This document shows, one piece after another, positions 34,980-51,921 of a stretch of 64,000 nt of DNA. How positions within the stretch are numbered: position 1 is the first letter of the stretch; each line of letters opens with the position of its first letter. The notes beneath the pieces are model-generated. The model ran no database searches. It had not been told where the DNA came from and was given only the letters and a program-made list of their open reading frames with translations. Origin of the DNA: Comamonas testosteroni (GTDB lineage Bacteria > Pseudomonadota > Gammaproteobacteria > Burkholderiales > Burkholderiaceae_C); the NCBI RefSeq assembly GCF_014076415.1, contig NZ_CP043568.1, positions 4,898,001 to 4,962,000 on the forward strand, given 5' to 3'. Made by a program: the position numbers and the translations under genes.

Positions 34980-35807
34980 TCATGACCTCTCGCGTGCACT
35001 TCTCCCTTCATAGAAGCCAGGGTGATTCCGCGAGGTCGCTTTACGCTGGTTTCGCCTGACCTGGAGAGACTGGTTGGAAAGCAAAAGAAGGTCATGCGGT
35101 AGAACACCCATCTTCTTGAAGCGCGTCAGGCTATCGAGAGAGTGTCTTTTGGCATTACCTGTGATGAAAAAGTGTCGATGGAAGATGGCCGCCAGCAAAG
35201 CCCTTCCATTTTCAAGAACAGCTTTTTCCCATCCTGCCACGAGTCCCTCTTTTAGAGGATGTGGCGTACTATCCCAACCAGTGTCCAAGCGCTCTGCACA
35301 CTGTAGGCAATGGCCCAGATGGGCGACCCCCTCTCGCTTCAATCCCGCATTGAGCATGTCTCCAGGCAACTGCAAATCACACCTGCAATGAGGACAACTC
35401 TCGCCTAGCAAGCAATCGTGAATAGGGCACCAACGCCAAGCTTTAAATCGCCAGTGCAGAGGAAAATGCTTGCATCCAGGTTCATGCAAGCACGACGAGC
35501 AATACCTGTATCGAGGCATTCCATTCTTTGTCCAGAGCAAAAAATCTTCACCCGTAGGATCGATGCTGCGAACGCCGGAGAACATATGTTCCGCGAAGCC
35601 AAAGGATGAGACAGCTTGTCCGGTTAAGTTCGCCACATTCCAAAGAGCATTTCCCGCCAGCGTCAGGTCCGGATCACGCTTTACCGGCAGCCCCACATAC
35701 GTCATCAACTCCTTCACTTCCACACCTTGGCTCAATGCTGCCCGGGTGAGCCAAGAGGCAGGACTTTCATAGCCATGAATAGGAGGAATGCCAACCAAAC
35801 GTCTCAT
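34980..35807 (-). CDS. tniQ: TniQ/TnsD-family target-selection protein 2
   Basis: A 275-residue TniQ-domain protein, the last gene of the Tn7-like operon. The N-terminal PPIHGYESPASWLTRAALSQG is the TniQ beginning. A zinc-finger set follows: Cys103-x2-Cys106, Cys127 with His130, and Cys138/Cys141. It overlaps the upstream tniQ gene by 4 bp. TniQ/TnsD proteins bind the attachment site and hand it to the AAA+ protein TnsC. A second, different TniQ in the same operon suggests two target-recognition subunits or two target routes. Confidence 0.85.
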   Translation of the reverse strand: MRRLVGIPPIHGYESPASWLTRAALSQGVEVKELMTYVGLPVKRDPDLTLAGNALWNVANLTGQAVSSFGFAEHMFSGVRSIDPTGEDFLLWTKNGMPRYRYCSSCLHEPGCKHFPLHWRFKAWRWCPIHDCLLGESCPHCRCDLQLPGDMLNAGLKREGVAHLGHCLQCAERLDTGWDSTPHPLKEGLVAGWEKAVLENGRALLAAIFHRHFFITGNAKRHSLDSLTRFKKMGVLPHDLLLLSNQSLQVRRNQRKATSRNHPGFYEGRSARERS

Positions 35808-36778
35808 GTGGCAGCCCCTTCAAACAGATCCAACTGTCCTAGCTCCGGGTATCCGCGAACCACTAGATCCATTTCCTTTTGGCCAAAGATCCACTGAAAC
35901 AGTTGGCGACCAATGGCTTCATCCTGGTAGCCTGTCGGACAAGTCATCAAGCTCACTAGTGGTGCGCGCGCAACCAAAGAGGCCCATGCACCGTCATCCT
36001 CGGCCCTGGCAGCAAAGGCTTGAAGGCGCCCAAGCGCTCGTCTCACGACTTCTTGAGCGTCAGCGGGAGCCAGACAACGAGAAAGCTCCCTCGGACATAG
36101 CGGTGACCATGAGCTTGGCAACAAGCCAAACGCATAGAACACTTGCATCCAACCATCAAGCGATAGACCTGTGAGCCACCTCGGGACGCCGGTGTCCTCT
36201 ACCAGACCAGAACACGGCTCCGATCGAAGCGAAGCCTGCAAAATGCGCTGTGCATACAGAAGCTCAGGCGTTGCCAGGACTGCATTGTCTGTGCAGCCCA
36301 AGTGATGTCGACATCCACCCCACTGCACTCCCTTACGATCCCATTTGATCACTGCCTGGCATTGAGGACATATTCCTGTCAGGCACAGGCCGTGCTCCAG
36401 GCAGCATGTCGAAAGTGTCAAATCCCATACATCGAGCAAGTATCCCTTCTCAAAAACGCATTGCGGACATACCTGAGGCTGGTTCGTCCGCAACACTCCC
36501 GGCTGACGAAAAAGGTGTCCATAGCATGCCCGTCGTGCCCCCATAGACCGCGGCAAAGTTGCAGGCAAACGATGGGCAAGCCTCGCTTTGTCGACGCCGA
36601 ACCATTGCGCAAGTCGTGGGGCATGTACAGACTTGAGTCGTTCCGAAGCTCCTATACCAAGTAGCCGATGCAGGGCTGACAGCCTCCCTCCATTCATGGC
36701 CACAGAGCGTAGACAGAAGCCAAGACCTGATTCGTCGTCGCGCAACTCACTGGAGATTGGAAATGGGCTTTCAGACAA
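35804..36778 (-). CDS. tniQ: TniQ/TnsD-family target-selection protein 1
   Basis: A 324-residue TniQ-like protein. Its start differs from canonical TniQ, but the zinc-binding core is clear: Cys104-x2-Cys107, Cys125/Cys126 with His129, and Cys137-x2-Cys140 (VCPQC, CCLEHG, CPQC). The C-terminal 150 residues are helical and unlike TniQ2. It overlaps TnsC by 8 bp and TniQ2 by 4 bp, so production is coupled. It probably serves, with TniQ2, as the DNA-target adaptor. Confidence 0.83.
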   Translation of the reverse strand: MSESPFPISSELRDDESGLGFCLRSVAMNGGRLSALHRLLGIGASERLKSVHAPRLAQWFGVDKARLAHRLPATLPRSMGARRACYGHLFRQPGVLRTNQPQVCPQCVFEKGYLLDVWDLTLSTCCLEHGLCLTGICPQCQAVIKWDRKGVQWGGCRHHLGCTDNAVLATPELLYAQRILQASLRSEPCSGLVEDTGVPRWLTGLSLDGWMQVFYAFGLLPSSWSPLCPRELSRCLAPADAQEVVRRALGRLQAFAARAEDDGAWASLVARAPLVSLMTCPTGYQDEAIGRQLFQWIFGQKEMDLVVRGYPELGQLDLFEGAAT

Positions 36779-37736
36779 AGGGATTACTCCTCAAAGTTGC
36801 CTGTCCACAGACTTGTTTGAAGGCGCTGCAGAAAGCCTCCTTGTCCACCGCAGAGTGACCACGGTCAAACGCGATAAGGATGGCTTCCGTCATCAGTCTT
36901 TTGAAAGCACGCAGATTTCCATCGGTGGCCAAATGCAAGAGCATCGCCACTTCCGGAGCATGAATGTACCCAAGATCAAACGACTGACATTGCTTTGCAA
37001 AGGCACGAACAAAGCCAACCCAGTTTCCGTCCGAGGTAAAGTTCTTCATCTCCTCTCGGATAGGGACTCGCGAAGCAAGATGAGACGCGGCATCAGGCAA
37101 GGTATCTAGCTCAGAGGTTCCAGCAAGAACCAAACTAATGTTGCATTCGTCCATAAGTTCTCTGAGGAATTCCGTCGCCTCGTTTTCCAAATCGCTGGAG
37201 GCAGAGACACGCCGCGGATAGAGCAAGTGATGTGCCTCATCGATCCAGATGAGACGTGTTTTGCAATTTTTCAGGGCGTCAAACACCAGAAAGCGTCGCA
37301 TATACAACTGCTTGCCAGAACCACCAGCAAACGGATACTTGAGAGCCTTCAAAATGCCCTGTACCAGATGCCCAGTCTTCGGCCTGCTTTGCACCCGCAC
37401 ACCAATCGCAGCAAAGTCTTGCGAGAAAAGTGCGGACTGCGGCAATGACGCCCGGAAGTACTTGAATGAATCAGTTTTGCCAACCCCACTGGGGCCGATC
37501 AGGCACATTCCTTGAGGCATGCTGAACTCCGTTCCCAGCTGGAATAGCCTATCTAGTGCCTTGAGAGCACGAACCGCATCCGGAAACAGTACAAACGCTC
37601 GATCAGCTTCTGTTGCCACGCGCAAAGCACCCACGCTATACGTAGACAAGCGACGAGCATCCAATGCCAGTTGCTCCGGATCGGGGGCATCAAGCTGCAT
37701 GGATTGGTCGAATATCTTTTTTTGGTCGTTTCGCAT
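36771..37736 (-). CDS. tnsC: TnsC/TniB-like AAA+ transposition regulator
   Basis: A 321-residue AAA+ ATPase with Walker A GPSGVGKT (81-88) and Walker B LIWIDEAHH with Asp166-Glu167. Its size is that of the short TniB-like TnsC proteins and far below the 555 residues of Tn7 TnsC. It assembles on DNA, receives the target from TniQ/TnsD and activates the TnsA/TnsB transposase. It starts 3 bp after the tnsB stop. Confidence 0.92.
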   Translation of the reverse strand: MRNDQKKIFDQSMQLDAPDPEQLALDARRLSTYSVGALRVATEADRAFVLFPDAVRALKALDRLFQLGTEFSMPQGMCLIGPSGVGKTDSFKYFRASLPQSALFSQDFAAIGVRVQSRPKTGHLVQGILKALKYPFAGGSGKQLYMRRFLVFDALKNCKTRLIWIDEAHHLLYPRRVSASSDLENEATEFLRELMDECNISLVLAGTSELDTLPDAASHLASRVPIREEMKNFTSDGNWVGFVRAFAKQCQSFDLGYIHAPEVAMLLHLATDGNLRAFKRLMTEAILIAFDRGHSAVDKEAFCSAFKQVCGQATLRSNPFV

Positions 37737-37739
37737 GAT

Positions 37740-39692
37740 TTAAAACGCAAGAGATTCGAACTCTGGAATTTCTTTCTCAGAGATTCGGTATTCACTAGGA
37801 ACAATGAGTTGTTTCGATTCAGAGAGCGGCAGTTGGGGCGACGAATCCGAGCTCGATAGGACCTTGTGGGATGTCATGTCTGCATAGCGCCCGGCGCGCA
37901 GTGCATCTGCCCGCCCTCGATGATTTGTCGCCTCCATCCAATGCTCATGCAGCCGTTGACGAGAAGCCAGCAACGACTCATACCTCTCTGGAGAGCTCAA
38001 ATCCGCCTTTGCGAACTTCCTGATCAGTTGGTGCTGATTGAAGCTCAAACCCCTGGCATAGGCCGGCCACCGGCATACAGCGTCATGCCATGACAGCCCG
38101 TCGGGATCCAGCACCTTCATGATGGAGATGTCATCAGGATCGAACTTGCACAATAGTCTTTGCTTCGGCCCATACTTCTTGACAATGTCTTTGAAGGCAT
38201 AGCTGCCATAGGGCAACCCGTGGAAGCCGATTCCTCCCTGATGCAGAGTCAACTGCTTTGACATTCCTGAAGCCCACGTCAATTGCTCCAAGCTGCCAGG
38301 AAAAGTAGCTGGTGGGCAACGCTGTATTCCTTCAGCAAACAACTCATAAGGCATTGCCATCTTTCTCCAGTTCGGTTGATGTGGGTACACATCCACCACA
38401 AACATGAGCAAGCCACGAACCAAGTCGCTGAAAGTGATCGAGGCATCCTTGTAAGGGTCGATCCTTGCGACGTTGGCCACGGATGGGCGAATACGCCCCT
38501 TCATCAATGTCAAGGTGTTCAACGTGGAAAAGAAGCGCTCAACGTGCGGTTTGAGCCATGGTGTCCTGACACGGCAGTACATCAAGTCAACGCCCAGTGC
38601 CATCGCCATGGTCTTGAACCCGAATGAGTGGAATTCGAGCCCGTTGTCGATCACCCACTCATCGCCAAGCCCCATGGATAGCCAATCACTTTGGAGATCG
38701 AGCCCATGCAAAAGCGGGGCCTTGGGCAAAAGCGCATTACGAACCACTCCGCATACAGAAGTCAGCCCGGGGCCATAAAAGGAGATATAGAAACCAAGGA
38801 TGTAGCCCGAGTACGCATCAATCATCACCGTCAAAACAGGCCTCCCCAAAGGTAGCCCTGTACGGTCACAAATCACGACCCAGTTCAACGGGGTATGGTC
38901 AATTTCAACTCGCTGGTACGGATACGCAGCTACTCCCTCCGGGAAAGCCGTTCTGCAAACTATCCGAGCTCTCGCCACACCTTCACGAGCAGCAACTCGC
39001 GTATACAGATCAATGTCCTGAACTCTGCGTGCCAAAGTTGGAAAGCTCACCTGAGCCGTGTCTTGCTCCAACTGACCGCTCTTCACCAAGCGCTTGAGCT
39101 CGCTCTCAAGCTGGTCGTAGGTAAACCTCAAAGAGTTCCTATGTGGAGTTAGGTAGTGCTGCTTCAGCATCCTCCAGATAACGTCTTCCACAGAGTCGAT
39201 CAAGCGCCGTGCTCTCTTTCGCATGCGGTGCTTGTTAACTAAAGCAAGTGCGTTATTTCCCGAGATTTCATAGTTGCGCATCCAGAGCATCACAGTGGTT
39301 GCCGATGGAACCGCCTCGCCTCTAGAGTTGGCCAACTTGGCGATGGCTTCTTCGATCTTCTTGCGTTGCCCTTTTGTAATGCCCTGTCGTCGCAGGCGAC
39401 TGACGTAATCAAGTCGGCGCTCCAATTCGGATCTCTCGTGCTCCTTCAAGGCACTTAAGTCCAGCACGGAAACCACTGTTCTATTAGCAAACCGACCTTC
39501 GGGTGCACCTCCCAGCACCACTTGGTATTCCTTGCTATAGATTCGATGGATCAGCTCCGCAACGCCCAAAATCAGAGCCCGACGGGTAATCACGTCCTCA
39601 AATTGGTACTCTTGATCAGGTAATTCCCTGGTGAGTTCCAGGGTCCGTTGGCCCGCTCTAAGCGTCAAGCCAGTTTGCAAAGCGAATTGCAT
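37740..39692 (-). CDS. tnsB: TnsB-like DDE transposase
   Basis: A 650-residue Mu/TnsB/TniA-type transposase. The catalytic triad of the rve core is Asp265 (VEIDHTPLN), Asp349 (WVIDNGLEF) and Glu385 (KPHVERFF), with D-x35-E spacing. Helical DNA-binding regions precede it (about 90-250), and a C-terminal region after 560 probably contacts TnsC. The ATG at 39692 has GGGGGAGAACC before it and overlaps tnsA by 35 bp; the longer frame lies within tnsA. It joins 3' ends to the target. Confidence 0.94.
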   Translation of the reverse strand: MQFALQTGLTLRAGQRTLELTRELPDQEYQFEDVITRRALILGVAELIHRIYSKEYQVVLGGAPEGRFANRTVVSVLDLSALKEHERSELERRLDYVSRLRRQGITKGQRKKIEEAIAKLANSRGEAVPSATTVMLWMRNYEISGNNALALVNKHRMRKRARRLIDSVEDVIWRMLKQHYLTPHRNSLRFTYDQLESELKRLVKSGQLEQDTAQVSFPTLARRVQDIDLYTRVAAREGVARARIVCRTAFPEGVAAYPYQRVEIDHTPLNWVVICDRTGLPLGRPVLTVMIDAYSGYILGFYISFYGPGLTSVCGVVRNALLPKAPLLHGLDLQSDWLSMGLGDEWVIDNGLEFHSFGFKTMAMALGVDLMYCRVRTPWLKPHVERFFSTLNTLTLMKGRIRPSVANVARIDPYKDASITFSDLVRGLLMFVVDVYPHQPNWRKMAMPYELFAEGIQRCPPATFPGSLEQLTWASGMSKQLTLHQGGIGFHGLPYGSYAFKDIVKKYGPKQRLLCKFDPDDISIMKVLDPDGLSWHDAVCRWPAYARGLSFNQHQLIRKFAKADLSSPERYESLLASRQRLHEHWMEATNHRGRADALRAGRYADMTSHKVLSSSDSSPQLPLSESKQLIVPSEYRISEKEIPEFESLAF

Positions 39693-40323
39693 GGTTCTCC
39701 CCCGAAACAGATTGCTTAAACAACCGCACCTTCGCATTGCCTTCGTAGTGCAGGTCTGCACTGAGCAACACTTGACGACGCGTCACCATGTAAAGCATGG
39801 TTGCTTGGCTGATTCCAGCCTCAGTGAGCTCTTTCACTGGAAGCCCATGGTCCCCCACTTGCTCCAGTAGCGCCTTGCATTTGTGCATCGCCTCGGCGTC
39901 GCAAGCTCCTTTGGCATACCGGCGGATGTAAAGCGCGCGCTCCGCTAGCCCCTCGCGACGCAGCACGTTGTCTAAGGCCAGAAGAAAGGGGATACCAGAT
40001 GTACTCAGCTTCAGACGAACTTGTTCAAAGTGCGCCTGGAAAGAGGCCACAAACTTCTCTGGCTTGACTTCAACTACCGCCCGTGACCCATCTTGGAACG
40101 TCACCAGATAGTCAGGTGTGTACTTTTTTCCCGAGGGTAGAGTGAGTTTGAAAGGCTGAGATTTGATTGATGTGACATTGGGAAAGAGCGCGGCGCAATG
40201 CACGAAGTCGCGCTCAACCGAGGAGTCGGCTTCGATTGCCTCGGGCTGAAGGTGTGGGAGGTGCAGCAACCGCACGGTATGGGCAGGCGAACGCTGAACC
40301 ACTTTTCTCGTCGAGGGTTCCAT
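39658..40323 (-). CDS. tnsA: TnsA-like endonuclease
   Basis: A 221-residue TnsA-type nuclease. The restriction-like active site is Glu37 (SSVERDF), Asp71 (YTPDYLV) and Glu85-x-Lys87 (VVEVKPE). The C-terminal 130 residues form the winged-helix-like TnsA C domain (VKELTEAGISQATMLYMVTRRQVL). It cuts the 5' ends of the element, making cut-and-paste rather than replicative transposition likely. An AGGAGAGAACC ribosome site precedes the ATG, and the unknown upstream gene ends 9 bp before. Confidence 0.9.
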   Translation of the reverse strand: MEPSTRKVVQRSPAHTVRLLHLPHLQPEAIEADSSVERDFVHCAALFPNVTSIKSQPFKLTLPSGKKYTPDYLVTFQDGSRAVVEVKPEKFVASFQAHFEQVRLKLSTSGIPFLLALDNVLRREGLAERALYIRRYAKGACDAEAMHKCKALLEQVGDHGLPVKELTEAGISQATMLYMVTRRQVLLSADLHYEGNAKVRLFKQSVSGENHAIRFANWLDA

Positions 40324-41040: not shown

Positions 41041-41349
41041 CTAGCAGTCCTTCATGTGCTCTGCATCACAGGTCTCGCCGCTACAAGCGGCGGAGGGCTC
41101 GGTTGCACCAAGCCTGCACTTCCATATCCACGTAGCGACCTCATGAGTCAGCGCGAACCGACCGCGCCTCTTCGGCATACCAAACACAGCTACAGGTAAA
41201 TTTCCTCGTGATGCCGCCTGCCGAAAGGCTGCTGGGCTGGGGTAACCGAGTGCCTGCTGAAGATCTCGCCCCCCCATCACCAGACCGTGCCTAGCCGTCA
41301 GTTCCTCTAGCACTTCACGCTTGATTGGGTGGTCACCGCTGTCTCGCAT
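41041..41349 (-). CDS. Small predicted DNA-binding protein
   Basis: A 102-residue protein whose middle part (MGGRDLQQALGYPSPAAFRQAA, then FALTHEVATWIW) resembles winged-helix excisionase/AlpA-like or plasmid-borne regulators, where a short helix pair is followed by a basic wing (MPKRRGRF). Its C-terminus carries three cysteines (ACSGETC, MKDC). It is divergent from the gene at 41460 and sits between the transposition operon and the accessory island. A regulator of one of these is likely; the family name is not certain. Confidence 0.55.
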   Translation of the reverse strand: MRDSGDHPIKREVLEELTARHGLVMGGRDLQQALGYPSPAAFRQAASRGNLPVAVFGMPKRRGRFALTHEVATWIWKCRLGATEPSAACSGETCDAEHMKDC

Positions 41350-44228: not shown

Positions 44229-47200
44229 ATGAAACGATCTGATCTAGACATCGCTGACCCTTCGAGCAGTGACATGTCCCGCCTCGGTGGTACCTGCTGT
44301 TTACCTGCCATTAAGGGTGCGGTCGAAGAGCAGTACTTCGAGCAAGCCATGACGGCTTTGATGAGCCAAAAGTTTTGGACAGCAGCTACCGATTCAACCT
44401 CATATCGGCCGACGAATGGCCTCTGGGCGCCCCAGCGTCGTGCTGTGGGAACGGCAGTCGCCTATCTTGGCGCTGTCGAGGGGACGACACCCACGGAGTC
44501 TGCGCTCATCAAGATGCCCACAGGAACGGGAAAGTCCGGCGTGATCGCCACCTTGGCGTGCGCGCTTCCAAAGGTCCGCAGGACGTTGATCATCACGCCA
44601 CGGAGAGCGCTGGTTGACCAGATGCTTAAGGACGTTCATTGGAGGTTCTGGAAGCATTTTGGCCTCATGTACCGGAAGTCGGGGCTGAGCAAGATCAACC
44701 CTGGTGATGCAGAGCCCAAGGACACGCAGATGGCAGCCGATGGCGTAATGAGGCTGCTGCCATCGATGACATCGGCCTTGTGCGCCTATCCCCAGGGTCA
44801 GCGGCTGATCGTGGTGGGCACGTTCAGTGCACTGGCTCAGATCCTCAGGCCTCCACGCCCAGCACATCGGTTGACTGGCGCCTACCCAAACGAGCGCGAG
44901 GAAAGTCCGGCTGACGCACCTAGATCGGCTGAATGGAAACAACCCGATGCTGACATGGTCCGGGCTGTGCTGGCCGACTTCGACCTTGTCATCGTTGATG
45001 AGGGGCACTACGAGCCAGCGTTCGTCTGGTCACAGTGCATTCGTGCTCTGGCGCGCCCCACGGTACTGTTCAGCGCGACGCCGTACCGCAATGACTTCAA
45101 ATACTTTCAGGTGCGTGGCAACTACGCGTTCAACCTTGGTTACGAAGAGGCGACGAGCCATCACCTGATCCGCCGCGTCGCATTCGCCGATGCCAAGCAT
45201 CTTCCCAAAGCCAGTTGCAGTCCCCTCGACTTTGCCGCTGCCCTTATTGCATTCAAGACCAACGTCCTCGACAAGCAGCACTGGCCTACCAGGCTCGGCA
45301 TCAGGCGCGTGATCGTCCGCTGCGCCAACTATGAGTCGCTGCAACGCATGCGCGACGCGCTTAGCACATTAGGTCGCAAGGCGGTGCTGATCCATGACAA
45401 CGTGTTGCGCGACGATGTGAACAAGCTGGAGTTCCAAACGGTGAAGCCGGCATTGGACGCGGCCGAGGCCGCGCCCGTCGAATACTGGCTCCATCAATGG
45501 AAACTCCTGGAGGGTGTGGACAACAGCACCTTCGCCACCGTCGCGATCTATGAGGCATTCACCGCTTCACGGGCGACCATCCAGCAATTCGGCCGCGTCA
45601 TCCGAGTGCTTGACCGCGACGCACCTAGCAAGGAAATCGCAACGGTCTTCGCCTGCGCGGACATCCAAGCCGACGCTCAGGCCCGTTTTGATCGATACAC
45701 CCGCTATGAAAGGCATTTCGCCAACGATCCAAAACGGGCTCTCGAGCAAGAGTCGAACCTACCCTCGCTTCTTTTGGAGAGCGTGGCGCCCTATCAGTAC
45801 CTGGCGGGCGACTTCCGAGAGCGCGTCCCGCTGAACGACCCCTACGAAGTTCCGAAATTCGCTGACTTCGCGGTCCCGCTGAGAACGTCGATCTATCGGT
45901 ACTCCGGCCACGCCACGCTCGACGAATTGGCGAAGTCCTGTGCCGACGCCATGCAGCTCGAGGACCGGTATCACGTGACGATCCTCAAGCCCGGCGCTGC
46001 AGAGACTAATTCAGTCCGGTTGATTCACTACCTAACTTGCAAGAACTCGGAGCTCCTGGTCAGACACTCGCTGCCCATCTGGGGCCTGGGCGTGATGGTC
46101 ATCGCCCAGATCGGCCAACGTGTATTCTTCCTGGATACCGAGGGGATCGTGATCGAGCTGGATGCTCTCGGGCTTGAGCCAGAGTCGGCGGAGCACCTGC
46201 AGCGCCTGATCCCGGCGGACCAGACCGGCGTCGCGTCCAGGGTGTCACAAGCGTCCGCCATTGGCTTGGACCTCTCGAAGACCGCGGTCCGTTCCATCAC
46301 AGCCCGGATGCACGATTTCGCCAGCGACTTCTTCGACCTCTCACAGAACAGCCAGGCGCTGCATTCAGTGCGAGCATCCATGCGGCTGCAAAACACGCCT
46401 GTGACCCGTTACCTATCAATCGACCGAGCCAGTGTTTCCGACTACAGCGCCCGCACGCAGCGGCGCTCGGTGAACGAGTACTTCTCGTGGCTCCAGTTCT
46501 TGGCCGCGATCCTTGACTCGAACGCTCCCGTGAGTGGCGTGTTTGACCGATTCGCTCGTTCAGTGGCTGCACCGGCCGTCCAGGACGCAGAGCCGATGAA
46601 CGTCCTTTTCGACTTCTACGATCTGCTGGACAACGCCGTCGACACGGCAGGCTGGCATGCCGCGAGATGCGAGTCGCTTCGACAAGCGGAAACCTGCGTT
46701 GACGTTGACAGCTCAGGAAAGTTCACGTTGGACGTCGCCGGTAAGAACTTGAGTGGGAAGATCACGTACACGGTCACCGGCAATGTCCGGCCCAAAGGGA
46801 GGTACGACATTGAATCGCCTGAACTCGACGCGTTCGTCAGAGATCCGAGCGCACCGTCGACAGAACCCGCGTCACTGGTCCGCGCTCTTAACAGGGAGCA
46901 GGCATTTCGGGTCATACCGAGCGGATCGGACCTCACGTATGCCAAACGGTTGTTCTATCGTACGGGACTGGACATCGTCGCCATTGCCCAAGGCCGTGAG
47001 GAAGGGTCACCTCTGGAGATGCTGACGCCTTCACCATGGCTTGAGCGGGTCACATCTGAGAAGGGGGGCGGAACGGCGGCGCAATGGGTGGCGCACTCGG
47101 TATTCGGCGGCATGTTCGCGGAGTTCGGTCTCTCAAAACATGGCGCGCCTTCGACGGCCAAAAAGCGGCCGCTGCGTACCTTGGATCCGACGCTCTCTCA

Positions 47201-47720
47201 GGAAATCGATACGTTTGATACGCTGGTGTGTGACGACGGCGGCCAGGAGCAGGCAGATTTCATGTGCATGGGTGAATCGCCAAGGCGCGTGGTGTTCATT
47301 CACGCAAAGGTCAACAACAGCCAGATGAGCGTCAGCGCCATGCAGATCGTTGGCCGGCAAGCCATGGCATCCCTCGCATTTATGGCACGAGGCGCACGAC
47401 TTATGGACCGAACCGCCTGGTGGCAATCGCCATGGTCCACAGATGATCACCAGCAAGTTCCTCATCGCCTACTGAGAGCTGCGACCCCTGACCTCGCGAC
47501 CACATGGAACGAGATCAAGCGCGGAATCCAATCTGCTCAATACGCCAAGGAAATCTGGATCTTCGCGGGCCGCACCCTTAGCAAAGCAGAGCTCATAAGG
47601 CAGCTCACTCGCCCAAGCGGCCCAACACCCCTATCTCTGCAGATGGTGTACTTCCTGGGAGCGCTTCAGACGTCGGCAGCGAGAGCGAACGTTGCCATGC
47701 GGATCTTCTGCTCCAACTAA
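44229..47720 (+). CDS. Large SF2 helicase with PD-(D/E)XK-like C-terminus (defence candidate)
   Basis: A 1163-residue superfamily 2 helicase. Motif I is MPTGTGKS (96-103), motif II is VIVDEGH with Asp257-Glu258, motif III is SATP (282-285) and motif VI is QQFGRVIR (462-469); this layout is like the DEAD/DEAH helicases of restriction-type systems. The middle third (about 500-950) has no recognised domain. Near residue 1015-1030, DFMCMGESPRRVVFIHAKV has the strand pattern of a PD-(D/E)XK nuclease with His-x-Lys in place of Glu-x-Lys. It is followed, 340 bp on, by an ATPase/nuclease pair on the same strand. I infer a nucleic-acid translocase of an anti-phage or anti-plasmid system. Confidence 0.78.
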   Translation: MKRSDLDIADPSSSDMSRLGGTCCLPAIKGAVEEQYFEQAMTALMSQKFWTAATDSTSYRPTNGLWAPQRRAVGTAVAYLGAVEGTTPTESALIKMPTGTGKSGVIATLACALPKVRRTLIITPRRALVDQMLKDVHWRFWKHFGLMYRKSGLSKINPGDAEPKDTQMAADGVMRLLPSMTSALCAYPQGQRLIVVGTFSALAQILRPPRPAHRLTGAYPNEREESPADAPRSAEWKQPDADMVRAVLADFDLVIVDEGHYEPAFVWSQCIRALARPTVLFSATPYRNDFKYFQVRGNYAFNLGYEEATSHHLIRRVAFADAKHLPKASCSPLDFAAALIAFKTNVLDKQHWPTRLGIRRVIVRCANYESLQRMRDALSTLGRKAVLIHDNVLRDDVNKLEFQTVKPALDAAEAAPVEYWLHQWKLLEGVDNSTFATVAIYEAFTASRATIQQFGRVIRVLDRDAPSKEIATVFACADIQADAQARFDRYTRYERHFANDPKRALEQESNLPSLLLESVAPYQYLAGDFRERVPLNDPYEVPKFADFAVPLRTSIYRYSGHATLDELAKSCADAMQLEDRYHVTILKPGAAETNSVRLIHYLTCKNSELLVRHSLPIWGLGVMVIAQIGQRVFFLDTEGIVIELDALGLEPESAEHLQRLIPADQTGVASRVSQASAIGLDLSKTAVRSITARMHDFASDFFDLSQNSQALHSVRASMRLQNTPVTRYLSIDRASVSDYSARTQRRSVNEYFSWLQFLAAILDSNAPVSGVFDRFARSVAAPAVQDAEPMNVLFDFYDLLDNAVDTAGWHAARCESLRQAETCVDVDSSGKFTLDVAGKNLSGKITYTVTGNVRPKGRYDIESPELDAFVRDPSAPSTEPASLVRALNREQAFRVIPSGSDLTYAKRLFYRTGLDIVAIAQGREEGSPLEMLTPSPWLERVTSEKGGGTAAQWVAHSVFGGMFAEFGLSKHGAPSTAKKRPLRTLDPTLSQEIDTFDTLVCDDGGQEQADFMCMGESPRRVVFIHAKVNNSQMSVSAMQIVGRQAMASLAFMARGARLMDRTAWWQSPWSTDDHQQVPHRLLRAATPDLATTWNEIKRGIQSAQYAKEIWIFAGRTLSKAELIRQLTRPSGPTPLSLQMVYFLGALQTSAARANVAMRIFCSN

Positions 47721-48060
47721 TGGCTGGCAGCCAGCAGGTCGAGGGGGCCAAGGGCGACGACCGCAAATGATCGAAGCAACCGTTCCTTTAGTGAGCGAAG
47801 ACAGGCGCCTCCCACCCTGGGGCGGTCTTCTGCGAAGCCGGCTTTACATGCGTTCCGGCCCCTTGCAGCCAAGCTAGTCTTTGCACGATACACTCGGTAG
47901 AGTGCGCAAGCTGCGCAATACCTTTATGCATGCTACGGAATGCGGCGAAGACGTTGATTCGGTAGCGCTTACCTCGACTCTGTTTAGCCACCGTAGCAAA
48001 GGCAATGATGTCACCATGCGGAGCTTTGTGATCGAGTGACGGACCCAACGGAGGAAAGCA
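47721..48060. other. Gap between helicase and ATPase genes
   Basis: About 340 bp with no supportable gene. A GGAGG at 48050-48054 is the ribosome site for the TTG start at 48061. A short minus-strand frame (47788-48048) shows no ribosome site or known motif. The length leaves room for a separate promoter, so the helicase and the following pair may be independent units. Confidence 0.45.
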
Positions 48061-49944
48061 TTGGATATTGAAACCGCTGGGGCCATCAGGCTTTTTTTCC
48101 CCAACCCATCGTTGACCTTGGTTTATTTCGAGGCGCTAGCCAATGCGCTTGATGCGGGTGCGACCGAAGTGTCCATCGATATTGATGTACAGGCGTTCGA
48201 TAAGCCGAACACGCTAAAAATCGCGGTTTCAGACAATGGCGATGGGTTCACAGACGAAAATTTCGAACGTTTCAGGAAGCTATTGAGACCCAGGGACAAG
48301 TTCCACAAAGGCATTGGGCGCCTGGTATTCCTCAACTACTTCAGTCGGGTAGAGGTCACCAGCACCCGCGACAAATGGCGCAGGAGCTTTATCTTTAAAG
48401 ATGGTTTCGATGGCAATGCACCACTCGAAAATTTGCAAGATGAGCAGCCAGCCAAAACAACGCTGGCATTCAATGGTTTTGCAAAAGATCGCATCAAATC
48501 CTATGACGATTTGAAGCCCGACGCACTCAAACCACTCTTGATTGAGCAATTCCTGCCGACACTGGATGCGCGCAAGCGTGATGGCACAGTATTCAACATT
48601 TCGATCAAGCTGAAGACCATAGAAAGCAACGCACAAAAGGAGTTTTTTCCACACGAAACGCTCATTACAGCCGATGACTTGCCTTCAATGACCAAGATCA
48701 CCATCCAGGATGATTCTCTGGATGCGTTTTCGACCATTGACATGTACTACCACGTCGAACCGGTGTCGGGAAAAGGAAGCCTACTTGTTGCCTTCAGTAT
48801 TGATGGTCGGACGATTCCAGTTAACTTGATACCGACATCGTCTTTCCCGCCTGGGCACATGGGTGTGTTCCTGTTTGAGTCGGAGATGTTTCACTCCAAT
48901 GCTGACAGTTCGCGTCAAAAGCTAATACTGCCGGAAGGCCTTCAAGAGGCGAGTCTTTATCGCGTCTTGCGCCGGGAAGTTGGCAAGGTGTTGGCAGAAA
49001 AAATTCCGAAGATCACGGAGAAGAATGAAGAGGTAAAGGGAAAATTTGAAGAGCAATTCCCACATCTTCTTGGCTACTTCGAAAACGATACCGTTGGCTT
49101 GATTGATCGTGATGATGCTCTGGATATAGCGCAGCAGAAATTCTTCCGCGCTCAGAAGCAGGTGCTGCAATGCGAGACACTGACCGAAGCAGCATATGAG
49201 AAATCTCTGGAGTTGTCATCGCGCACGTTGACCGAATACATCTTGTACCGCGACAAGATCATCGGCCGTATGAAGGAAATGACGGCCGACAATGCCGAAT
49301 CCGAAATACACAATCTCATCGTCCCGAGATTCAAGGAATTCTCGAAAGAAGCCATGCCTTCGGAGGTTTACCAGAACAACGCCTGGTTGCTGGATGACAA
49401 GTTCATGGTGTTTCGTACCATTTTGAGCGAGCAGCGGATGGATACCGTCGTCAATGCCATACGGCTCGACGAAGAATGCGAGAAAGATGCGGGCAGGCCG
49501 GACATTGCCATGATCTTCTCCGCCGATCCAAAAGATACCAGCGCAGTGGACGTGGTCGTCATCGAAATCAAGAAGAAAACGGACGATGAAAAAGAAAATC
49601 AGTATGCCATCAATCAACTGCTTGATCGTGCGGTGAAACTGGCGTCGCATTGCCCTAATATCCAGAGGATCTGGTACTACGCCGTCATCCAGATCAGCGA
49701 CACGATGGGAACTCGGCTGCGTCAGCAAAACTGGGCACCACTGTTCTCCATGGGGAAACTTTACTACCAGGAATTTCGAACCGAACGACCGGATGGAACG
49801 GTGGTCCCGACTCCGACTTTCGTCGTGTCATTTGATGCCATCGTGGCAGATGCCGAAAGCAGAAACCACACATTCCTCGAAATCTTGCGCAACGGCATGA
49901 GGGAATACGCCGCACAACAGGCCACCGGCCAGGCAGGCAGCTAG
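48061..49944 (+). CDS. GHKL ATPase fused to PD-(D/E)XK nuclease domain (defence candidate)
   Basis: A 627-residue protein. The N-terminal GHKL (HSP90/MutL/histidine-kinase-like) ATPase has N-box EALANALD with Glu24, Asn28 and Asp31, G1 box DNGDGF (58-63) and G2 box KGIGRLVF (83-90). A linker of helices and a coiled-coil-like stretch (LAEKIPKITEKNEEVKGKF) follow. The C-terminal part has PDIAMIFSADPK (about 480) and VVIEIKKK (about 499-506), the two halves of a PD-(D/E)XK active site. Translation starts at TTG with GGAGG six bases before it; no ATG is better placed. It ends 4 bp before the Mrr-like gene. ATP-driven clamp closure gating a nuclease is a likely mechanism, by inference. Confidence 0.8.
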   Translation: MDIETAGAIRLFFPNPSLTLVYFEALANALDAGATEVSIDIDVQAFDKPNTLKIAVSDNGDGFTDENFERFRKLLRPRDKFHKGIGRLVFLNYFSRVEVTSTRDKWRRSFIFKDGFDGNAPLENLQDEQPAKTTLAFNGFAKDRIKSYDDLKPDALKPLLIEQFLPTLDARKRDGTVFNISIKLKTIESNAQKEFFPHETLITADDLPSMTKITIQDDSLDAFSTIDMYYHVEPVSGKGSLLVAFSIDGRTIPVNLIPTSSFPPGHMGVFLFESEMFHSNADSSRQKLILPEGLQEASLYRVLRREVGKVLAEKIPKITEKNEEVKGKFEEQFPHLLGYFENDTVGLIDRDDALDIAQQKFFRAQKQVLQCETLTEAAYEKSLELSSRTLTEYILYRDKIIGRMKEMTADNAESEIHNLIVPRFKEFSKEAMPSEVYQNNAWLLDDKFMVFRTILSEQRMDTVVNAIRLDEECEKDAGRPDIAMIFSADPKDTSAVDVVVIEIKKKTDDEKENQYAINQLLDRAVKLASHCPNIQRIWYYAVIQISDTMGTRLRQQNWAPLFSMGKLYYQEFRTERPDGTVVPTPTFVVSFDAIVADAESRNHTFLEILRNGMREYAAQQATGQAGS

Positions 49945-49948
49945 TCAA

Positions 49949-51292
49949 ATGGCCAAGGCAAACGGCTTTGCCGTACTCCTCGCTAAAGAACGAGTGGACA
50001 CATTCCTTGGATGTGTGGCCGAAGAGCGGACGTTTGCTGAGCCTGTCGCTGACTTTCAACACAGCCGAACCGCACCACTGGTTTGCTTTGTGGTTAATGC
50101 TGGGAAGTTGACGCACATTGGTCTGGGTCGTCGCGGCGTGCGCGCCGGGACAGGCTTGAGCCGATTGAACATCGACAAAGCTGAGGAACTGTCGGAGCCA
50201 ATATCAATTCGGAAGCTGCTCAACCGCTTGCCGAAGCGTAACGCAGCATCCATCCGCAAGCGGTTCCAGTCGGGCGGCTTGTTGACCGAGAAAGGCTTCT
50301 CCGCTGTTGTCGAAACTCTCCGACAGCTTGCACCCCAAGCCAGCACCTTGCTGGATCGGTTCAGTGAAACCAGAACTGCCCGCATCCGGCGATTGCCCGA
50401 CAAGGCAAGGAAGAACCTGGCACAGCAGAAAGAAGCTGTGCTGACGGCGCTGTCGATTGCCGGACTTAGCCGCGACCCCGTTCAGGAATGGGCGCCCTCG
50501 GATGAAACGCCGGTCTCCTTTCTGGACGGCTTGCCCAGCGTTCGGCTGCGCGAAGACCCGATGGTGGTCAACGACCTGCAAAACCTGCCGGGCTTTGAGG
50601 TAGTCAAGAGCTACCCCTATGGCGCAGCGGTATTCGAGTCGGAGGAAACGTCAGAACGCCTCACCGTCATCCTTGCCAATCGTCTTCCGCTCGAAGAGCA
50701 AACCGGCACCGATCTCATCTACTTCAACGAAACCTACCAGAGCTTTGTGATGGTTCAGTACAAGGCGATGGAGCGTGAAGATAGGCGCAACAGGCCAGCC
50801 GAAGCCGTCTATCGGTTGCCCGACGCGCAGTTGAAAGAAGAACTCGACCGCATGGATGCCGTGCTCGGCACGTTGAAGGCATGTGCGCCCAACACCGACA
50901 TTGGCGGCTACCGGCTGACCGAAAACCCGTTCTTCCTCAAGCTCTGCTCCCGGCTTGTATTCAACCCGGATGACGTAGGCTTGGTGCCCGGCATGTACCT
51001 GCCGCTGGATTACTGGAAGCTGTTGGAGAACGACCCTGGCATCCAGGGGCCGAGGGGTGGTCTGCGGATCACCTACGAAAACGCAAAGCGCCATTTCGAC
51101 AACACCGCATTTACAACCGTGGTGTCCAAGGCGTGGGTTGGTACGACGCCCAGCCAGTCGACGGTTCTTCAGGATGTCATCCGAGCAACCCTAGAAACGG
51201 GTAAGGCAGTCGCCATTGCCATCAAACCGAAGAAGTCTGCCGAACACCGAACGGAAAGTGAAGAAACAGGCGAGGAAGCACTCGATGTCTGA
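49949..51292 (+). CDS. Mrr-like nuclease-domain protein (defence candidate)
   Basis: A 447-residue protein with no recognised N-terminal domain (about 1-180; mostly helical, basic, with RRLPDKARKNLAQQ). A core follows containing GTDLIYF (Asp near 254) and VMVQYKAM (Gln-x-Lys near 269-271). Asp...Gln-x-Lys is the Mrr variant of the PD-(D/E)XK site, typical of modified-DNA restriction. The C-terminus is acidic. The gene starts 4 bp after the GHKL-ATPase/nuclease gene, so the two are an operon. It may be a second nuclease or the target-recognising partner. Confidence 0.7.
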   Translation: MAKANGFAVLLAKERVDTFLGCVAEERTFAEPVADFQHSRTAPLVCFVVNAGKLTHIGLGRRGVRAGTGLSRLNIDKAEELSEPISIRKLLNRLPKRNAASIRKRFQSGGLLTEKGFSAVVETLRQLAPQASTLLDRFSETRTARIRRLPDKARKNLAQQKEAVLTALSIAGLSRDPVQEWAPSDETPVSFLDGLPSVRLREDPMVVNDLQNLPGFEVVKSYPYGAAVFESEETSERLTVILANRLPLEEQTGTDLIYFNETYQSFVMVQYKAMEREDRRNRPAEAVYRLPDAQLKEELDRMDAVLGTLKACAPNTDIGGYRLTENPFFLKLCSRLVFNPDDVGLVPGMYLPLDYWKLLENDPGIQGPRGGLRITYENAKRHFDNTAFTTVVSKAWVGTTPSQSTVLQDVIRATLETGKAVAIAIKPKKSAEHRTESEETGEEALDV

Positions 51293-51921
51293 CATATTTT
51301 CCGCGAGCGCAGCCTTGTTATCTACTCGCCCCGACAATGCCTCGGCCAGACCTTCGTCTGCGACGACGCGCATAGCGAGCATTTACTCGCGCTGTTAGCG
51401 CAAAGGCTGAAAGATCCAGTATTCCGCAAACAGGAAGGTTTTCCGCAGGGAGCGGGCGAAGCGATCCTCCCTTGAAGTACGTGCTGCATCCAGCCGTTTA
51501 GAGAGGCGTATATGCCTACATCGGAGCGCTATTAGCCTCGTCGCAGTCGACAGAAATTCGAGTCGGTTCCCATCGAATCGTGCAGTCGAGCAGCCGATTC
51601 CAAAGGGTGCGGCTACGCGGCGCTCAATGTCTGGTATTGGCAGTTGCTGCTGTTCAGGAGCCGAACTTTGAATGACTCAGATCAGCCTGAAGCTGTAGTT
51701 CGGAGGTGCACTGTGGGTGTCTGCTCTTGGCCGATAGTGTGAGTATGTGTATGCGCCAGGAAGCAGGCACTCCGTCACGCGAGCCAGTTCGGAAAGGTCA
51801 GCTGTCAGCGAGGTCCGCGAACTGGTGCTACCGGCCTAAGCAGTCACTCAGGTTCATCAAATGAATAACGGCTTCTGACGGTGTCCAGTTAATTTGCAGC
51901 ACCACAGTTGCGACGAACTGC
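51293..51921. other. Gene-free stretch with degenerate repeat copy
   Basis: About 630 bp after the defence-like cassette without a supportable gene. It contains the repeat copy at 51580-51740 described separately. It marks the right edge of the accessory island. Confidence 0.5.
51580..51740 (+). repeat. Degenerate intergenic repeat, copy 1
   Basis: About 160 bp that aligns in the same orientation with 60985-61165. The best part reads ACTCAGATCAGCCTG, then a short variable piece, then AGGTGCACTGTGG in both copies, with a matching GTGCARTCGAGC word further left. It has no coding potential and looks like remains of a dispersed Burkholderiales intergenic element. Confidence 0.6.

What the first reader, a model, noticed from the sequence alone, without database searches (positions are those of the whole stretch)
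48061..51292. GHKL-ATPase/PD-(D/E)XK protein paired with an Mrr-like protein: possible uncharacterised defence pair
Seen: a GHKL ATPase (Asn28, Asp58, Gly84-Gly86 boxes) carries a C-terminal nuclease site (PDIAMIF...VVIEIKKK). Four bases later comes a protein with the Mrr form of the nuclease core (GTDLIYF...VMVQYKAM). Known: GHKL ATPases act as ATP-gated clamps, for example in MutL, and Mrr nucleases cut modified DNA. Inferred: the ATPase clamps or scans invading DNA and the two nuclease domains cut it. The combination does not match any named system I can recall.
Basis: partly seen in the sequence, partly recalled or inferred. Interest (0 to 1): 0.78.

Follow-up and report, generated by a model that had tools for sequence, protein, structure and literature searches.

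The report
Two nuclease genes stranded from BREX
Two neighbouring bacterial genes that probably cut phage DNA in two different ways look like the surviving side-branch of a larger, lost anti-phage system called BREX, and the second gene belongs to a large, still unnamed family that is predicted to recognise chemically modified DNA.

Summary
ORF 48061-49944 (627 aa) is a GHKL ATPase plus transducer plus PD-(D/E)XK nuclease; its catalytic residues are invariant in 30 aligned proteins. ORF 49949-51292 (447 aa) has an Mrr-like E...D...QxK core, kept in 49-50 of 50 aligned proteins. The reading of an uncharacterised stand-alone pair is only partly right. The ATPase-nuclease belongs to a described class (paraMORC3; GHKL-Shedu VcSduA; BbrUII/HgiDII). 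In 18 of 42 loci it lies in a type 3 BREX operon, in 17 of them just before pglXI, and in 6 more in or beside restriction-modification operons. In the window a broken pglXI stub follows the pair and is the genome's only PglXI match: the pair looks like the leftover cassette of a lost BREX locus. The second protein's N-terminus models as an EVE/YTH-type modified-base reader, so it is predicted to be a modification-dependent restriction enzyme. Its family is large, with no Pfam, NCBIfam or PADLOC hit for the members scanned. The partners are separable, though they share contigs more often than chance. Best reading: two complementary, independent nucleases. New variant of a known kind.

The parts
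48061..49944 (+). GHKL-ATPase/PD-(D/E)XK nuclease gene (paraMORC3-like), TTG start, GGAGG at 48050-48054
   Evidence: of 35 relatives checked 34 have ATG and 1 GTG at this place
48061..49005 (+). GHKL ATPase plus transducer (S5-like) module, residues 1-315
49288..49941 (+). C-terminal nuclease domain, about residues 410-627; E413, P480-D481, D497, E502xK504
   Evidence: identical in 30 of 30 aligned proteins; hhalign to the C-terminus of L004, E 3.6e-13; its fold was not matched separately
49949..51292 (+). EVE-like reader plus Mrr-like nuclease gene, 4 bases after the first; predicted modification-dependent restriction enzyme
49958..50374 (+). N-terminal PUA-superfamily (EVE/YTH/ASCH-like) domain, residues 4-142
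50531..51157 (+). PD-(D/E)XK nuclease domain, residues 195-403 (E249, D255, Q270xK272)
51305..51499 (+). Broken remnant of pglXI (type 3 BREX methyltransferase), matching its residues 8-76 only; an ATG at 51285-51287, just before the stop codon of the preceding gene, is in another frame than this stretch, which holds a stop
   Evidence: tblastn 56% identity over 70 columns, E 2e-15; only PglXI match in the genome, E 9e-15
51832..51915 (.). Right boundary: from here on (51832, 51872 and 51915 in three genomes) the sequence matches same-genus genomes at 91-95%
48044..48060 (+). Left boundary of shared sequence: similarity to BREX-borne relatives (L014, L016) and to L012 begins at 48044-48045
   Evidence: blastn, 85-91% over 116-117 bases

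Best explanation
The pair is the stranded accessory-nuclease cassette of a type 3 BREX locus whose core has been lost, and it encodes two independent anti-phage nucleases. Protein 1: an ATP-driven GHKL dimer closes around DNA like MutL or MORC and gates its C-terminal PD-(D/E)XK nuclease, cutting invading DNA as VcSduA is thought to. Protein 2: an EVE-like domain reads a modified (probably flipped-out) base and an Mrr-type PD-(D/E)XK domain cuts nearby, so phages whose modified DNA escapes the BREX-type layer are met by a second one. Shown here: domain folds (by model), conserved active sites, the BREX slot in relatives, the pglXI stub, no other PglXI match in the genome. Inferred: that the window pair once stood in an intact BREX operon, DNA as substrate, ATP gating, reading of modified bases, independence of the two, continued function after loss of BREX.
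For: Fold and active sites. Context: in 17 of 42 loci the GHKL gene precedes pglXI with 0-1 gene between; an 18th (L050) has BrxC, BrxF and Schlafen cluster genes upstream and its contig ends inside the GHKL gene (clusters, named through representatives). The gene between varies: Schlafen in L017/L018/L030, PD-T7-3 in L015, EVE nuclease in the window. Six more loci lie in or beside RM operons: type I in L035, L041 and, by cluster, L043, L047; type III in L040; type ISP in L027. pglXI stub beside the pair and no other PglXI match in the genome. Constraint against L012: dN 0.073, dS 0.843 for gene 1 and dN 0.054, dS 0.547 for gene 2 (370 codons). Precedent: VcSduA loses defence when either its ATPase or its nuclease residue is changed (PMC12137116, passages); EVE-HNH VcaM4I is a modification-dependent enzyme (PMC7897488, passages).
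Against: No function was tested. The EVE assignment rests on a model alone (mean pLDDT 74.8; best Foldseek E 0.036); no EVE profile hit was seen even at E 10. The genes share a contig more often than chance (7 coincident contig lengths against 0.5 expected), which could mean cooperation. The dN/dS values also cover the time before BREX was lost. The L012 copy of gene 2 is frameshifted, gene 1 is split into two ORFs in L033, L037 and L044, and the window's gene 1 has TTG where 34 of 35 relatives have ATG; all are compatible with decay.
Confidence: 0.62

Rival explanations
1. The two proteins form one machine: the EVE nuclease recognises a modified base and recruits the GHKL nuclease, which clamps the DNA and makes the second cut.
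For: 4-base gap and same order in the window and in L012; 7 coincident contig lengths between the two homologue lists against 0.5 expected.
Against: Gene 2 lies beside gene 1 in 1 of 42 loci of gene 1, within the stretches held; no gene-1 match at 12 of 12 other gene-2 loci tested; the same slot holds Schlafen or PD-T7-3 instead.
Confidence: 0.2
2. A dead relic: both proteins need BREX components, and the cassette decays in this genome.
For: pglXI is reduced to a broken stub and no other match exists; TTG start; frameshift in the L012 copy of gene 2.
Against: Both window ORFs are full length with all catalytic residues; the 12 closest clusters, 99-100% identical, keep 623-627 aa, though these are probably one lineage; relatives of gene 1 live outside BREX in RM operons and relatives of gene 2 lie on plasmids with no gene 1 or PglXI match.
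Confidence: 0.16
3. Protein 1 is a sequence-specific type II restriction enzyme of the BbrUII/HgiDII kind that has lost its methyltransferase.
For: The related L073 protein is a BbrUII/HgiDII family member by NCBIfam (797.2 bits, cut-off 550) and aligns to the window family by hhalign at E 1e-7.
Against: The window protein scores 22.2 bits against that cut-off of 550; no methyltransferase ORF was recognised beside it apart from the pglXI stub; in relatives it sits in operons with their own methyltransferase (PglXI, HsdM).
Confidence: 0.1
4. Housekeeping mismatch repair (MutL-like) pair.
For: GHKL+transducer fold shared with MutL.
Against: MutL models 15.4-23.7 bits against cut-offs of 180-391; patchy distribution (matches in 5 of 200 order-level genomes, the window's own included); defence neighbourhoods.
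Confidence: 0.02

Closest known systems
VcSduA, a GHKL-Shedu (type I-D) of Vibrio cholerae, and the paraMORC3 class of Iyer et al. 2008
   Same: One polypeptide with N-terminal GHKL ATPase, middle transducer/clamp-like domain and C-terminal PD-(D/E)XK nuclease with E-D-ExK; RM/defence neighbourhoods; [quoted passage not shown]
   Different: No SduA_C (PF14082) hit in the window protein at E 1 and none by hhalign to two canonical SduA_C proteins; the window family is tied to type 3 BREX and RM operons. VcSduA itself was not fetched or compared.
BbrUII/HgiDII family restriction enzymes (NCBIfam NF050001)
   Same: GHKL plus nuclease of about 650 aa; L073 is a member and aligns with the window family.
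   Different: Window protein far below cut-off (22.2 of 550 bits); no methyltransferase partner recognised.
VcaM4I (EVE-HNH modification-dependent endonuclease)
   Different: Nuclease is PD-(D/E)XK-like (QxK), not HNH; no detectable sequence similarity to EVE profiles or solved EVE proteins.
MspJI-type modification-dependent enzymes (recalled, from no call)
   Same: PUA-superfamily reader plus Mrr-like nuclease with a QxK motif in a chain of similar length (recalled).
   Different: No Mrr_cat or other restriction-endonuclease Pfam family among the hits of 18 members at E 10.
Type 3 BREX with auxiliary nucleases (PMC12839542)
   Same: Accessory nucleases, Schlafen RNases and Gabija/PARIS-like modules lodged in or beside the core operon; the same is seen here.
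   Different: That paper's main text has no occurrence of GHKL, MORC or MutL (its supplements were not seen); in the window the BREX core is gone.

Membership tests
paraMORC3 (GHKL + S5 + RE-fold nuclease) | GHKL ATPase with transducer/S5 domain | tested here: met
paraMORC3 (GHKL + S5 + RE-fold nuclease) | C-terminal RE-fold domain with E-D-ExK | tested here: met
   E413, D481/D497, E502xK504 identical in 30 of 30; met by residues only, the fold of this part was not matched separately
paraMORC3 (GHKL + S5 + RE-fold nuclease) | Sequence clustering with the published members | not tested
   published member sequences were not fetched
Shedu (type I) | SduA_C / DUF4263 (PF14082) nuclease domain | tested here: not met
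   no hit at E 1, no PF14082 match in the own genome; hhalign of the C-terminus to two canonical SduA_C proteins E 0.62 and 0.12, no match; to L073 (borderline SduA_C: 24.5 bits, 29.2, cut-off 27) E 0.0027, probability 11, against 0.021 for the best of 12 shuffled controls
BbrUII/HgiDII restriction enzymes | NF050001 above cut-off (550 bits) | tested here: not met
   22.2 bits
BREX core gene | Constant presence in BREX and absence elsewhere | tested here: not met
   18 of 42 loci in type 3 BREX, 6 of 42 with RM operons, others elsewhere: accessory, not core; BREX loci without the gene were not counted
EVE/PUA modification-dependent restriction enzymes | PUA-superfamily reader domain | tested here: inconclusive
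EVE/PUA modification-dependent restriction enzymes | Nuclease domain with intact active site | tested here: met
EVE/PUA modification-dependent restriction enzymes | Cuts modified but not unmodified DNA | not testable with these tools
   needs enzyme assay
Mrr (PF04471) | Mrr_cat profile hit | tested here: not met
   the own-genome search with PF04471 gave one match, outside the window
MutL mismatch repair | MutL equivalog score | tested here: not met
   23.7 bits against 180 and 15.4 against 391

The most novel reading that the evidence does not exclude
Probability: 0.25. Interest if true: 0.72.

Novelty: new variant of a known kind. Interest (0 to 1): 0.5.

Why it matters
The second protein's family is large: 935 proteins at E 0.001 or better for one member and 1249 for the window's. 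In the 120 rows listed of each search no protein carries a Pfam domain, and those with a readable source name are called hypothetical, with one exception (AlkC, P0290). If its EVE-like reader holds, it adds a large class of modification-dependent restriction enzymes. The GHKL nuclease ties the paraMORC/GHKL-Shedu class to a fixed slot in type 3 BREX and to RM operons, which makes the idea of plug-in backup effectors directly testable: the same slot exchanges Schlafen, PD-T7-3 and, as the window suggests, the EVE nuclease. The window itself offers a natural background without PglXI.

Tried and rejected
Upstream helicase gene (44229-47720; partial PDC-S71 match) as a third component: rejected. 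It is separated by 340 bases; shared sequence with relatives begins only at 48044; tblastn of the helicase matched no locus except the window's own region; and the pair in L012 is preceded instead by a gene with GMP-synthase Pfam domains.

Tn7-like transposon as carrier: tnsA/B/C-like and two TniQ genes lie at 34980-40323. Ends were not established. One inverted pair, 20 of 24 bases, lies at 41235-41258 and 51762-51785 and so flanks the helicase and the pair. In that comparison 0 of 100 shuffles reached its 18 of 22, but it was picked from a whole-window search where by my own estimate a few such matches are expected, so it is left open. Comparison with three relatives fixed only the right boundary; the left flank of one relative gave 47 scattered matches in the own genome, so island size stays unknown.

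Other BREX remnants in the window: tblastn of BrxC, BrxF, BrxHII, PglZ, BrxA and Schlafen gave at best E 0.025, taken as chance. No BREX gene was found in the 20.7 kb of L012 with PglXI, BrxC, BrxHII and Schlafen queries.

Canonical Shedu membership: not met. Viral contigs: 2 distant relatives of gene 1, none of gene 2. Phage records: no match for either gene. E. coli genomes: no DNA match. Plasmids: no gene 1; 10 records with gene 2, all under 60% identity, of which 8 were read. Gene 1: 5 of 200 order-level and 2 of 369 class-level genomes, the own included; two of the order-level matches (L005, L006) look by eye like sensor kinases. Gene 2: 4 of 150 family-level and 4 of 369 class-level genomes, the own included, 0 of 249 around G717 and 0 of 9 around G712. 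Three L060 and L063 neighbours scanned gave no PADLOC family, and two of them no Pfam family. Alignment A4 held one wrong frame (L063) and was replaced by A5. The VIA list barely tests residues 318-627 of protein 1, so its nuclease is argued from residues and homology only.

Of the 42 loci, 12 were left unclassified: L026, L029, L033, L038, L039, L044, L045, L046, L048, L049, L052, L053. For five (L029, L038, L045, L046, L048) one neighbour each was scanned without a hit; neighbours of the other seven were not scanned. Cluster names rest on scanned representatives, not on every member.
Full report
OBSERVATION. The two ORFs are real and correctly placed. The first starts at TTG with GGAGG upstream; of 35 relatives checked 34 have ATG and one GTG at this place. 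The second begins 4 bases after the stop. Pfam recognises the GHKL domain of the first protein and nothing in the second. PADLOC has no match for either at E 1. NCBIfam gives only sub-threshold matches for the first and none for the second.

WHERE PROTEIN 1 LIVES. One scan of genome contigs gave 42 loci. Their ORFs were clustered and representatives of the BREX-like clusters scanned with PADLOC. The PglXI cluster is present in 17 of 42 loci: L013-L025, L030, L032, L034 and L051. All 17 also hold a BrxC- and a BrxHII-cluster gene. In 13 of the 17 pglXI follows the GHKL gene directly; in L017, L018 and L030 a Schlafen gene lies between, and in L015 a PD-T7-3 gene. In 11 of the 13 a Schlafen gene directly precedes the GHKL gene, and in L032 and L051 brxC does. 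An eighteenth locus, L050, has BrxF, BrxC and Schlafen cluster genes and its contig ends inside the GHKL gene. L036 and L037 have a BrxHII-cluster gene next, which was not scanned itself. Six loci lie in or beside restriction-modification operons: type I in L035 and L041 and, by cluster, L043 and L047; type III in L040; type ISP in L027. L042 has a PDC-M41A gene and an MTase_I-cluster gene, L028 and L031 a PDC-M05A-cluster gene, L012 has protein 2; 12 are unclassified. The 2026 survey of BREX accessory nucleases (PMC12839542; passages and part 1 of section 35) names Schlafen, Shedu, Gabija and PARIS modules, but its main text does not contain GHKL, MORC or MutL. A search for papers holding both GHKL and BREX returned two, the cholera paper and one on a DNA-damage kinase (the second seen as a listing only). 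Supplements could not be read, so this is no proof of novelty.

THE WINDOW LOCUS LOOKS LIKE A BREX REMNANT. A stretch at 51305-51499, with 12 bases between it and gene 2, matches residues 8-76 of PglXI (56% identity, E 2e-15). It holds a stop and is out of frame with the ATG at 51285 just before the stop of gene 2. It is the only PglXI match in the genome. Similarity to BREX-borne relatives begins at 48044, just before the ribosome-binding site, and same-genus sequence resumes at 51832-51915. Other BREX queries gave only chance-level matches in the window. So the pair most likely stood just before pglXI and has outlived the system. In L012 no BREX gene was found with the four query kinds tried.

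ARE THEY A PAIR? For: same order and spacing in L012, and 7 exact coincidences of longest-contig length between the two homologue lists against 0.5 expected by a jitter control (maximum 5 in 5000 trials); that equal lengths mean the same contig is an inference. Against: 1 of 42 gene-1 loci has gene 2 within the stretch held, and 19 of 20 GHKL-bearing genomes searched have no match. At 8 plasmid loci and 4 chromosomal loci of gene 2 a tblastn of gene 1 found nothing; the plasmid copies have varied neighbours, for example an ATP-binding protein plus UvrD helicase in L090. L062 has gene 2 next to AbiEi/AbiEii and a Schlafen-like stretch, and L064 has it near an HsdS gene. I therefore read them as separable effectors that ride together in one branch.

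MECHANISM. Most likely an ATP-gated clamp nuclease next to a modification-dependent nuclease, two complementary layers, each able to act alone. The steps on DNA, ATP and modified bases are inferred from relatives and models. Both genes show purifying selection against L012 (dN 0.073, dS 0.843; dN 0.054, dS 0.547), but this includes the time inside BREX.

VERDICT. A new variant of a known kind: a member of the GHKL-nuclease class in a BREX accessory slot, joined to an unannotated family of predicted reader-nucleases. Interest 0.5.

Noticed in passing
34980-40323 (- strand): Tn7-like genes: TnsA-like nuclease, a transposase with sub-threshold rve and Mu-type HTH matches, TniB/TnsC ATPase and two TniQ genes. 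Ends and cargo could not be defined.
   Followed up: partly
41235-41258 and 51762-51785: Inverted pair, 20 of 24 bases alike, flanking the helicase gene and the pair; 0 of 100 shuffles of the right stretch reached its best 22-base score, but it was chosen from a whole-window search.
   Followed up: partly
44229-47720 (+): 1163-aa DEAD/ResIII helicase whose C-terminal half matches the candidate defence model PDC-S71.
   Followed up: partly
L003 1501-3363 / L069 9212-11110: A relative of protein 1 (32-35% identity) sits between genes that look by eye like pheS and pheT, a site I recall as a cassette slot in Neisseria.
   Followed up: no
L015 10001-17857: Slot variant with a PD-T7-3 homologue between the GHKL gene and pglXI and the Schlafen gene after pglXI.
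   Followed up: partly
L051 9989-18337 and L032 10001-17698: Type 3 BREX loci where the GHKL gene and pglXI are followed by Gabija (GajA, GajB) or by an ATPase gene with best match NsnB.
   Followed up: partly
L062 1891-5395: A distant relative of protein 2 follows an AbiEi-AbiEii pair, 3 bases after AbiEii; a Schlafen-like stretch (31% over 124 aa) lies beside it.
   Followed up: no
L033, L037, L044: The GHKL gene is split into two ORFs in these three loci, so decay of the gene is not rare.
   Followed up: no
G000:C1:4819972-4820292: The one Mrr_cat (PF04471) match of the genome lies outside the window.
   Followed up: no
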